This document shows positions 584 to 3,598 of a stretch of DNA of 39,564 bases, one piece after another. Position 1 is the first letter of the stretch. Each line of letters starts with the position of its first letter. The DNA comes from Planctomycetota bacterium (GTDB lineage Bacteria > Planctomycetota > Planctomycetia > JALXBF01), in contig JALXBF010000162.1 in the NCBI GenBank assembly GCA_026991575.1, forward strand, positions 1 through 39,564, in the 5' to 3' direction. The notes below the pieces were generated by a model. It did not search any database. It was not told the origin of the DNA and saw only the letters and a list, made by a program, of their open reading frames with translations. Made by a program: the position numbers and the translations under genes.

Positions 584-1651
584 TTACCGTACCTCCACTT
601 GCATCTGACGAAGCGCTTCATAGACCGCATAGCGCCGTAGCTCGGCACGCTCCGCCGCCAATGCTCTGAGTTGTCTGATCAGTCCTGGTCGACCTTCATG
701 ACCAAACAGGACCGCTCGCTCCAGATCGAGTAACATCCCCTGTAGTTCCGCGGCCAATCTCCCGGCAGGATCCAACGCCCAGTGCACGGCATAGTCGATT
801 GCTATCGCCAGGAGCAGGGCAATCCAAAACCTCCAACTGCCTCGCTTGACCACGGCGGCCAACTTCCTGGACCGCGCAGCGACTCGGGACACGACGTAGA
901 ACAATGCGCGCTCCACGACTTCTGTGGCCAGCAGCACTGCCAGTTCGCGCGTCAGCGTCTCGAGCGGAACCTGGCCGAGCCTGGCAAGCATCGCGTTCCA
1001 GCACTCCCGCAGCTCGCCCTTCACGGTTTCCAGAAGCTGCTGCTTCTGGTCGGCCGAGAGCGTCGGGCTTTCCACCTGGATGTCGAGCGCCAGCTGGACA
1101 AGCAGCTCCGCTTCTGCGTCAATCTGCGCCTGAACGACGCGTTCGATCGAGCTGTGGATCAGCAAATTGAGCTCTTCGCCGGACAGCACCTGCTGCTCGA
1201 ACTTGCGTTGCAAGTCTTCGCGTCCATACCACAAGTACCGCAGCGCCGTCCACAGCGAGACCGCCTCCTCAGCAAATGCCGGCACGCTCGCTCTGGCTTC
1301 GCGGAAGAACCGGTGGATGTCGCGGCGCGCGTCGGTGATGGCTGCCTGAACAGTCCGTTCGCACTCGGCCAGGTGGCGCTCGACCGCGTCACGCCGGATA
1401 ACGAGTGTTGGCCCGGGTGGCTCAGCGACTTCGGTGCCAGTCACTGCAGCCTGTGGCGTGGCGGGCTGAAGGGGCACCACGTTGGGGCGGGCCAGCCAGA
1501 ACAGAACCCAGCCCACGATGGCCAGAATTCCCAGCAGCACGCATATCTTCGAAGCGACACGCATCTTGACGGAGCACATCTCCTGGATCTCTGCTCGCGT
1601 CTCCCTTGTGGAGTAGTTGTTGCGACGCGTGCTCTTCTGGGCCTTGGGCAT
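584..1651 (-). CDS. Two-TM membrane protein with helical middle, function unknown
   Basis: A 355-residue protein that I do not recognise. The ATG at 1651 is chosen because GAGGTGA lies about 8 bases upstream; the frame stays open to 1735 but without a better start. It has a basic N-terminus, a first hydrophobic segment at about residues 36-54 (ICVLLGILAIVGWVLFWLA), a mainly charged, helix-forming middle of ~180 residues and a second hydrophobic segment at about 274-292. A short amphipathic helical tail follows. This suggests an inner-membrane protein with a helical extracytoplasmic domain between two anchors. It runs in the same direction as the CARF nuclease gene to its right but is separated from it by ~450 bases, so co-transcription is unproven. 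No catalytic motif is visible. Confidence 0.7.
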   Translation of the reverse strand: MPKAQKSTRRNNYSTRETRAEIQEMCSVKMRVASKICVLLGILAIVGWVLFWLARPNVVPLQPATPQAAVTGTEVAEPPGPTLVIRRDAVERHLAECERTVQAAITDARRDIHRFFREARASVPAFAEEAVSLWTALRYLWYGREDLQRKFEQQVLSGEELNLLIHSSIERVVQAQIDAEAELLVQLALDIQVESPTLSADQKQQLLETVKGELRECWNAMLARLGQVPLETLTRELAVLLATEVVERALFYVVSRVAARSRKLAAVVKRGSWRFWIALLLAIAIDYAVHWALDPAGRLAAELQGMLLDLERAVLFGHEGRPGLIRQLRALAAERAELRRYAVYEALRQMQVEVR

Positions 1652-2098
1652 ACGGTTGCTCACCTCTTGACCTCGCCTGCCGGCAACCCCCGTCTTCCAG
1701 TGATACGGCCACGCGAGCGGAATCCTGACAAGCATCGCCTGACGTGCTGGCCCCCGTACGGGCTGAGCCGCTTACTCGCCGACCGCTGACCTCGTGCTCA
1801 GACGAAGCAAACGTTACGCAGGTGGCGAGCGGACGCGGGGCCGGAGGCGAGCGCCTCGGTAGATGACCGAGCCCAACCCTCCCGGCAAGACCGCCACGTG
1901 GGACGATCGGAAGACGGGCTACCTGGCATCGGTCTGCCGAAGAGCAGTCGCTGCGTGCCGGTCCCGCGGTGAGCAGGTGTCTGCAAGCGGATCAGAACGG
2001 CATTTCGGTCAGCGCGTGGTGTGTCCGACCGGTCTTCAAGCCGGCCCAACAGCAAGTGTCCGCGGTCGACTCGTGTGGCCGTGACCGCCGCCTGCGGC
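1652..2098. other. Intergenic stretch without a supported gene
   Basis: About 450 bases lie between the two-TM protein gene and the CARF nuclease gene. Short open frames exist on both strands but none has a plausible ribosome binding site plus a protein-like composition. I see no terminator with a T-run after the nuclease gene, no repeat array and no tRNA. Confidence 0.5.
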
Positions 2099-3598
2099 CT
2101 AGAAGAACTTCTCCGGCAGGCTTTCCACGAGCTGAGTTGCTTTCGATCCGCTGACGGTCACCGTTACGGTCCTGCCGCTGCCGGAGATGTAAGTCGCATA
2201 AGAGACGTCCCTGAGGCCGGCGGCGTGCCGCCTGAGCATTACCTCGACGCGTTGCCTGGCCACGTCTCTCGGCACACCGTCGGGGACAGCGGCCACGATC
2301 ACGTAATGCGTGCCCAAATCTACGATACACGTTTCCCAGCCGTTCGCACGATGCAGCTCCTGGAACCACTCAAGGATCCTCACCTTGCGGTCGCTCGACG
2401 TGTAGGGGCTCAGCTGACGGCCTGCGGTTGTCCTCGGCTGGCAAAAGCCTGGAAGAGCGTGCATCGATTGCCAGTGACGCAACGCCGCATCGACCCGCCT
2501 GGCAACGTCGGTCAGATTGGTGAGCCCCAGGAAACGGGCGAGGTTCTCGCAAAGGCAGCAAAAATCGCGGGCGTCCAGCACATCGAGGCTACGCGAGCGT
2601 AGCAGGCTCTTTTCCACGTCCGGAATCACTCGGTTTGGGCGCACGAACAGGTACTTCGCTGCCAGACCGCCCAGTTCCCGCCGCGTTGCATCCGCCTGGC
2701 GGTACTCTTCCGAAATGGGCCGCTCCTTGCTGACGAGCTTACAGTCAATGATGTGGACTCTGCCATTGCAGTTGACGACGATGTCCACCTCCTGATCCAC
2801 GCGGCCTTGCCTGGACCGCTTGACATTGGTCGCGATCTGGCTGCTGGGATTCTTCAGACCAAGCTGGCGGATGCAGGCGGCCAGGAACATCTCAAAAAGG
2901 AACCCGGGCTGCTTGGATGGACGCTGGCCAGCTTGTCGAAAAGCGACCGTCCAGATGTCTTCCTCCGGGCTTTGCAGGTCTGCTCTTGCCGGCAAGTGCC
3001 GGGCGATCTCGTCAACGGGCAGGTCCGGCACATCCTCGCCATACTCGATCACAGCGCCGTCGCCGGCCCAAAGAGCTTCGATCAACGTCCGCACGGGAAC
3101 GGAGTCGGTGATGGAGCGGGGCGGACTCCACGGCACCGCGCGGATTGCCCGGCCGTCTTCGGCTCGCTCAAGGACATACCACGTGCCACTCAGCTCACCG
3201 TAGACGGTAAAGGTGTTCGGCTCGCCTACGAAGCGCAAGATACCGGCCGTCATCAGCTTGGTGCCACCGGTTGCATTGAGCAGCCAGGTTGCGTTGGCCT
3301 GGCTCTTGAGCCATCGACCGACGCAACGCGTGACGTCGACAGGTTGCATGCCCCCTTGACGAAGCTCTGCGGTGACACCAAAGTGCTCACGTGCGATGCG
3401 TGCCAGTGCCCGCGCCGGCTGCGCCGAGCGACGTTCGTCGTCGGTGTGGTAGATGTAGACCCGTTCGAGCCAGGCATACGGCAGCTCGGTTCCGAAGAAG
3501 CACATCGAGGCAATGTTCGGCCAAAGCTGCTCGCTGGCAAGCACCACGAGCCTAACGGGGCCGCGGACGCTATGGAGGGCTTGCACAGGGGTCGTCAT
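2099..3598 (-). CDS. Card1/Can2-like CARF-domain nuclease with extra C-terminal domain
   Basis: This 499-residue protein has the layout of CRISPR type III ancillary nucleases Card1/Can2 (DUF1887-type). Residues ~15-145 form a CARF-like Rossmann domain: SEQLWPN at 22-28 and the ligand-loop signature NATGGTKLM at 108-116, the expected cyclic-oligoadenylate site. Residues ~165-225 look like the linker. Residues ~232-346 match a PD-(D/E)XK nuclease: FLFE (E236), QEVDIV (E270, D272), IIDCK (D285, K287) and a conserved-looking RRELGGLAAKYLFV. Family members usually have E-x-K where this has D-C-K. Residues ~366-499 exceed the usual ~370-400 residue length and form an unassigned alpha/beta-looking extension. 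Known members cut DNA or RNA when cA4 binds; that activity is inferred here. No cas gene or CRISPR array lies in the window. The ATG at 3598 has only a weak purine-rich upstream signal. Confidence 0.85.
   Translation of the reverse strand: MTTPVQALHSVRGPVRLVVLASEQLWPNIASMCFFGTELPYAWLERVYIYHTDDERRSAQPARALARIAREHFGVTAELRQGGMQPVDVTRCVGRWLKSQANATWLLNATGGTKLMTAGILRFVGEPNTFTVYGELSGTWYVLERAEDGRAIRAVPWSPPRSITDSVPVRTLIEALWAGDGAVIEYGEDVPDLPVDEIARHLPARADLQSPEEDIWTVAFRQAGQRPSKQPGFLFEMFLAACIRQLGLKNPSSQIATNVKRSRQGRVDQEVDIVVNCNGRVHIIDCKLVSKERPISEEYRQADATRRELGGLAAKYLFVRPNRVIPDVEKSLLRSRSLDVLDARDFCCLCENLARFLGLTNLTDVARRVDAALRHWQSMHALPGFCQPRTTAGRQLSPYTSSDRKVRILEWFQELHRANGWETCIVDLGTHYVIVAAVPDGVPRDVARQRVEVMLRRHAAGLRDVSYATYISGSGRTVTVTVSGSKATQLVESLPEKFF

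What the first reader, a model, noticed from the sequence alone, without database searches (positions are those of the whole stretch)
2099..3598. Orphan Card1/Can2-like CARF nuclease without CRISPR neighbours
The protein has the NATGGTKLM CARF signature and a PD-(D/E)XK nuclease layout of CRISPR type III ancillary effectors, but no cas10, no other cas gene and no CRISPR repeats are visible within 39.6 kb. It sits next to a transposase remnant in the most accessory-looking part of the window. It may answer to a remote type III system, or to a different cyclic-nucleotide signalling system.
Basis: partly seen in the sequence, partly recalled or inferred. Interest (0 to 1): 0.75.

Follow-up and report, generated by a model that had tools for sequence, protein, structure and literature searches.

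The report
Stand-alone CRISPR signal-activated nuclease, planctomycete
This gene most likely encodes a DNA/RNA-cutting enzyme switched on by the alarm molecule of CRISPR type III immune systems; it sits alone in the chromosome, but the same genome carries three such CRISPR systems with no effector found beside them, so it is probably their shared remote weapon rather than something unrelated to CRISPR.

Summary
In detail: window 2099-3598, MINUS strand, is a 499-aa CARF + PD-(D/E)XK protein. AlphaFold/Foldseek matches Card1, Can2, Cdn1 and VC1899 (best E 2.5e-18). The four residues that contact cA4 in Can2 and the nuclease residues are all kept. There is no cas gene or CRISPR array in the window. 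However, the window is one whole contig, and the gene lies 2.1 kb from an end that breaks inside a multi-copy IS630.

The genome is not CRISPR-free. It has three type III loci (III-B, III-D and an unusual third), each with a GGDD Cas10 and no local CARF effector found, plus at least four CRISPR arrays. Homologues in related planctomycetes often sit next to type III-B loci homologous to this genome's own. Family members occur almost only in Cas10-bearing genomes (11/12 versus 60/386). The one homologue in a Cas10-less genome has lost sensor and catalytic residues.

Best reading: a cA4-activated ancillary nuclease working in trans. It belongs to a mainly planctomycete Card1/Can2 subfamily with an extra C-terminal alpha/beta domain that matches nothing solved. 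New variant of a known kind, moderate interest; no biochemistry was tested.

The parts
2099..3598 (-). CARF + PD-(D/E)XK nuclease gene, Card1/Can2-like, 499 aa
   Evidence: ORF; Pfam, PADLOC, PDB and Foldseek matches
3128..3556 (-). CARF sensor domain, about aa 15-157
   Evidence: Pfam CARF_Card1 aa 17-133; model secondary structure
3251..3277 (-). NATGGTKLM sensor motif, aa 108-116; K114 aligns with cA4-contacting Lys99 of Can2
   Evidence: Alignments; Can2 residue roles from PMC7969007
2528..2956 (-). PD-(D/E)XK nuclease domain, about aa 215-357
   Evidence: Pfam Card1_endonuc aa 236-320; model
2738..2791 (-). Catalytic core E270-V-D272 ... D285-C-K287
   Evidence: Aligned with Can2 Glu276/Asp278; invariant in A2
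2102..2407 (-). C-terminal alpha/beta domain, aa 398-499, absent from Card1/Can2 as solved
   Evidence: Model pLDDT 85; no significant PDB match; domain profile found in members outside the training set
584..1735 (-). Neighbouring gene, 383 aa, predicted membrane-anchored helical protein of unknown function; doubtful part
   Evidence: No Pfam, NCBIfam or PADLOC family; 51% identical paralogue beside the III-D cas10 on C27
3..452 (+). IS630-type transposase gene cut by the contig end
   Evidence: DDE_3 5.7e-21, transpos_IS630 2.1e-24; 95% identical copy on C179

Best explanation
The protein is an ancillary effector of type III CRISPR immunity encoded away from its Cas10 loci. Proposed steps: (1) a type III complex (most likely the Cmr/III-B complex on contig C183, possibly also those on C32 and C27) binds invader RNA through a CRISPR RNA [loci and arrays shown; activity inferred]; (2) the GGDD cyclase of Cas10 makes cyclic oligoadenylate, most likely cA4 [motif shown; product inferred]; (3) cA4 binds between the CARF domains of a dimer of this protein [the four cA4-contact residues align and are kept; binding inferred]; (4) the paired PD-(D/E)XK domains open and cut DNA and/or RNA unspecifically, slowing the invader or the cell [catalytic residues kept; activity inferred from Card1/Can2]; (5) the C-terminal domain tunes substrate, dimerisation or localisation [pure inference].
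For: Fold and motifs. Three Cas10 loci with GGDD in the same genome and CRISPR arrays. No CARF protein found beside those loci: a broad CARF profile rings only twice in the genome, here and at a Lon-CARF gene on C115. In G167 the homologue directly follows a III-B locus whose Cas10, Cmr4 and Cmr6-Cmr1 fusion are 35-50% identical to C183; six other homologues are also in III-B loci and one follows a C32-like RAMP cluster. Family and Cas10 co-occur: 11 of 12 versus 60 of 386, Fisher p = 3e-8. The homologue in the one Cas10-less genome has lost sensor and catalytic residues. Published precedent for effector-lacking, cyclase-positive loci in genomes with several type III loci (PMC11229360).
Against: No biochemistry. 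Pfam scores fall below the curated cut-offs. The co-occurrence test ignores relatedness of the genomes. The left flank of the contig is unknown, so the gene may not be separate from cas genes at all. CARF families remote from the profiles used could lie beside the Cas10 loci unnoticed.
Confidence: 0.75

Rival explanations
1. It is an ordinary cis ancillary gene: the left side of the contig, beyond the IS630, carries a type III locus that the assembly did not join, so 'orphan' is an assembly artefact.
For: The gene is 2.1 kb from the contig end, which lies in a multi-copy IS. The next gene has a paralogue directly beside the III-D cas10 on C27. Several homologues are in cis with III-B.
Against: The IS630 search showed no matching element at an end of the Cas10-bearing contigs C183 or C32. 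Other homologues also have no cas genes in the flanks held, among them G298 with about 9 kb on each side. Same mechanism in any case.
Confidence: 0.15
2. It is a VC1899-like relic: a Card1/Can2 relative that no longer answers to cyclic oligoadenylate and has another or no function.
For: Stand-alone location; VC1899 is an orphan with weak, cA4-independent activity (PMC7969007). A degenerate relative exists in G472.
Against: All four cA4-contact positions and the catalytic residues are kept here, unlike VC1899 and G472, and the genome has three Cas10s.
Confidence: 0.07
3. It answers to a different cyclic-nucleotide system, such as a CBASS-type cyclase, rather than to Cas10.
For: Only its separation from cas genes in the window.
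Against: No SMODS synthase at E<=1 in the genome (Pfam SMODS covers only part of the CD-NTases). Strong co-occurrence with Cas10. cA4-contact residues kept.
Confidence: 0.03

Closest known systems
Card1 (PDB 6WXW, 6XL1)
   Same: N-terminal CARF and C-terminal PD-(D/E)XK nuclease; SEQ..PN and N-x-TGGTK-x-M motifs; best Foldseek match, E 2.5e-18
   Different: About 15% identity in the structural alignment; 499 aa instead of about 380, with an added C-terminal domain; DCK instead of ECK; not beside cas genes in the window
Can2 (7BDV, 8Q3Z; PMC7969007)
   Same: Same two domains; Glu276/Asp278 and Lys99/Tyr118 have counterparts E270/D272 and K114/Y133
   Different: Low identity, extra C-terminal domain, stand-alone location
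Cdn1, CARF-domain dual-activated nuclease (8Z4I, 9U49)
   Same: CARF-nuclease fold, Foldseek E 4.3e-15
   Different: Lower-ranked match; whether the window protein answers to more than one cyclic oligoadenylate is unknown
VC1899 (1XMX)
   Same: CARF + PD-(D/E)XK and encoded apart from type III loci
   Different: VC1899 has lost the cA4-contact residues (Asp9, Asp34, Arg96, Val115); the window protein keeps S22, T52, K114, Y133
Inter-locus type III signalling (PMC11229360)
   Same: Cyclase-positive type III loci without local effectors, in a genome with several type III loci
   Different: Here two effectors (this one and a Lon-CARF) are encoded away from every Cas10 locus found, rather than in another type III locus

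Membership tests
Card1/Can2 (Can1-2 effector class) | N-terminal CARF domain | tested here: met
   Pfam CARF_Card1 22.4 bits, below the 24.6 cut-off; profile to Card1 2e-7; fold
Card1/Can2 (Can1-2 effector class) | PD-(D/E)XK nuclease domain with intact active site | tested here: met
   E270, D272, D285, K287; aligned with Can2, invariant in A2
Card1/Can2 (Can1-2 effector class) | cA4-contact residues (Can2 Ser19, Thr42, Lys99, Tyr118) | tested here: met
   K114 and Y133 by direct alignment with Can2; S22 and T52 through Card1; residue roles from PMC7969007
Card1/Can2 (Can1-2 effector class) | Activation by cA4; DNA and/or RNA cleavage | not testable with these tools
   Needs purified protein
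Card1/Can2 (Can1-2 effector class) | Homodimer through CARF domains | not tested
   Only the monomer was predicted
Card1/Can2 (Can1-2 effector class) | Encoded in a type III CRISPR locus (typical, not strictly defining) | tested here: inconclusive
   None in the window, left flank cut by the contig end; three Cas10 loci elsewhere in the genome; homologues in cis with III-B
VC1899-like orphan | Loss of cA4-contact residues | tested here: not met
   All four kept
CBASS effector | CD-NTase (SMODS) partner in the genome | tested here: not met
   No SMODS match at E<=1; other CD-NTase families not searched

The most novel reading that the evidence does not exclude
Type III immunity in this planctomycete is organised as several Cas10 sensors of different subtypes (III-B, III-D and an unusual third) feeding one pool of cyclic oligoadenylate that drives a small set of physically separate effectors (this nuclease and a Lon-CARF). 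The planctomycete Card1/Can2 subfamily would carry a new C-terminal module that changes substrate choice or control.
Probability: 0.3. Interest if true: 0.6.

Novelty: new variant of a known kind. Interest (0 to 1): 0.42.

Why it matters
It is a clean natural example for an open question raised in PMC11229360: do cyclase-positive type III loci without effectors signal to effectors encoded elsewhere? Three GGDD Cas10 loci without a detected effector and two stand-alone CARF effectors in one genome make that directly testable. It also defines a Card1/Can2 subfamily with an unexplained extra domain, and the degenerate homologue in a Cas10-less genome is a ready-made negative control.

Tried and rejected
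The single-sequence scans of viral and genome collections found nothing; the two-sequence alignment then found nine genome loci. No homologue was found in plasmid, phage or IMG/VR collections, so there is no sign of a mobile-element carrier. Neighbourhoods of unlinked homologues share no consistent partner, mainly DUF1501-type genes common in planctomycetes. The neighbour gene 584-1735 was considered as a partner because of its paralogue beside the III-D cas10, but its distant relatives occur in genomes without Cas10, so it was not adopted. Foldseek gave no significant match for the C-terminal domain. No promoter-like site, and terminator-like sites at the shuffle level; nothing was built on them. 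GC content at the gene is close to the rest of the contig, so no compositional case for recent transfer. The tree of 13 homologues is too poorly resolved to say whether unlinked copies form one clade.

Full report
What is there. The gene occupies window 2099-3598 on the minus strand and encodes 499 aa. Pfam finds Card1's CARF and endonuclease domains just below the curated cut-offs, and PADLOC finds CARF_PDDEXK at 8.9e-14. Phmmer finds Can2 (7BDV) at 3.5e-4, and a nine-member profile finds Card1 and Can2 at about 2e-7. An AlphaFold model from the window protein and eight homologues has mean pLDDT 84. Its top 22 PDB matches are all CARF-nucleases of the Card1/Can2/Cdn1/VC1899 kind (E 2.5e-18 to 6.9e-11). 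The TM-scores of about 0.45-0.5 with rmsd near 7 A are consistent with the same domains in a different relative orientation plus an extra domain.

Sensor and active site. In Can2 the contacts to cA4 shared with Can1 are Ser19, Thr42, Lys99 and Tyr118, and VC1899, an orphan relative that does not respond to cA4, has lost them (PMC7969007). In the window protein K114 and Y133 align directly with Lys99 and Tyr118. S22 and T52 align with the corresponding Card1 positions. Catalytic E270 and D272 align with Can2 Glu276 and Asp278, followed by D285-x-K287. Binding and catalysis themselves are inferred, not shown.

Extra domain. Residues 398-499 fold confidently on their own (pLDDT 85, helix-two strands-helix-two strands-helix). 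They have no significant PDB match, and the window copy has no Pfam match. A profile of the domain recovers it in members not used to build it (G548 at 3.8e-25, G298 at 1.3e-7). It is therefore a real family feature and not an annotation error. Its function is unknown; a role in substrate choice, dimerisation or localisation is a guess.

Surroundings. The window is a whole contig, C162 of 191, and the gene lies 2.1 kb from its left end, which breaks inside an IS630-type element present elsewhere in the genome. On the other side, 36 kb carry no cas gene detectable with this genome's cas proteins and no short direct repeats. So the lack of cas neighbours is well supported on one side only.

The rest of the genome. 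Three loci carry Cas10 with an intact GGDD motif: C183 (type III-B: Cas10, Cmr3, Cmr4 and a Cmr6-Cmr1 fusion), C27 (type III-D, with Csx19 and Cas5/Cas7 of III-D) and C32 (Cas10 with several RAMP proteins between two large helicase-like proteins). CRISPR arrays with closely similar repeats lie on C182, C187, C96 and C47. A whole-genome search with a broad CARF profile rings only at this gene and at a Lon-CARF protein on C115. A local CARF profile finds none in the fetched stretches around the three loci. Both searches could miss CARF families far from Card1. No SMODS cyclase was found.

Relatives. In G167 the homologue directly follows a III-B locus homologous to C183 (Cas10 38%, Cmr4 50%, Cmr6-Cmr1 35% identity). 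Overall, seven homologues are in III-B loci and one (G447) directly follows RAMP genes of the C32 kind. Six, including the window's, had no cas genes detected in the flanks held, several of which are cut by contig ends; two further copies are too truncated to judge. In a sample of 398 genomes of the class, 11 of the 12 with the family have a Cas10 over the cut-off, against 60 of 386 without it (p = 3e-8, not corrected for relatedness). The exception, G472, has an intact ORF but has lost the sensor motif and catalytic residues (S22F, N108L, K114A, Y133S, D272L, K287N) and the C-terminal domain. That genome is about 90% complete, so its lack of Cas10 is likely but not certain. The same residues are kept in the other 12 proteins compared, the window's included, so the family stays intact where Cas10 is present.

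Interpretation. The evidence favours an ordinary kind of molecule in an unusual place: a cyclic-oligoadenylate-activated nuclease acting in trans for Cas10 loci without local effectors. This fits the inter-locus signalling suggested statistically in PMC11229360. Which of the three Cas10s supplies the signal is open; C183 is favoured because its homologues are the ones most often beside this family, and C32 is possible because of G447. The main rival is a hidden cis locus beyond the contig end.

Novelty. The protein class and the idea of in-trans effectors are known. The subfamily architecture and the arrangement of three Cas10 loci with two separate effectors did not appear in my searches of the held literature, but those cover open-licence papers only and I read only parts of three papers (PMC7969007, PMC11229360, PMC12669027).

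Noticed in passing
L063:8152-9540 (G000:C115:18152-19540, minus): A second stand-alone CARF protein in the same genome: Lon-like domain plus CARF (PADLOC CARF_m2--CARF_LON 2.3e-81), not on a contig with a Cas10.
   Followed up: partly
L051:8835-10280 (G472, minus): An intact but degenerate homologue that has lost sensor and catalytic residues and the C-terminal domain, in the only genome of the set without a detected Cas10. Possibly a CARF protein recruited to another role.
   Followed up: partly
L015:82-19182 (G000:C32): An unusual type III locus: GGDD Cas10 and several RAMP proteins between a UvrD-like 1573-aa protein and an AAA_11/AAA_12 helicase of 1366 aa; G447 has similar RAMP genes followed directly by a Card1-like gene.
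   Followed up: partly
window:584-1735 and L018:11673-12773 (G000:C27): The neighbouring unknown membrane-type gene has a 51% identical paralogue just upstream of the III-D cas10, but distant relatives occur in genomes without Cas10 over the cut-off, so the link may be chance.
   Followed up: partly
L067:9598-13787 (G000:C96): A CRISPR array of 8 repeats with a reverse transcriptase gene (RVT_1 6.9e-26) about 2 kb away.
   Followed up: no
L065:8682-8830 (G000:C187): Array with a gap where one repeat is missing from the regular spacing, probably a degenerate repeat; two adjacent spacers differ by a single base.
   Followed up: no
L049:9102-10372 (G333:C122) and L050:496-1277 (G333:C33): G333 carries two copies of the Card1-like gene, each split across reading frames: one beside a III-B locus, one near a contig end. 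Frameshifts or assembly errors.
   Followed up: no
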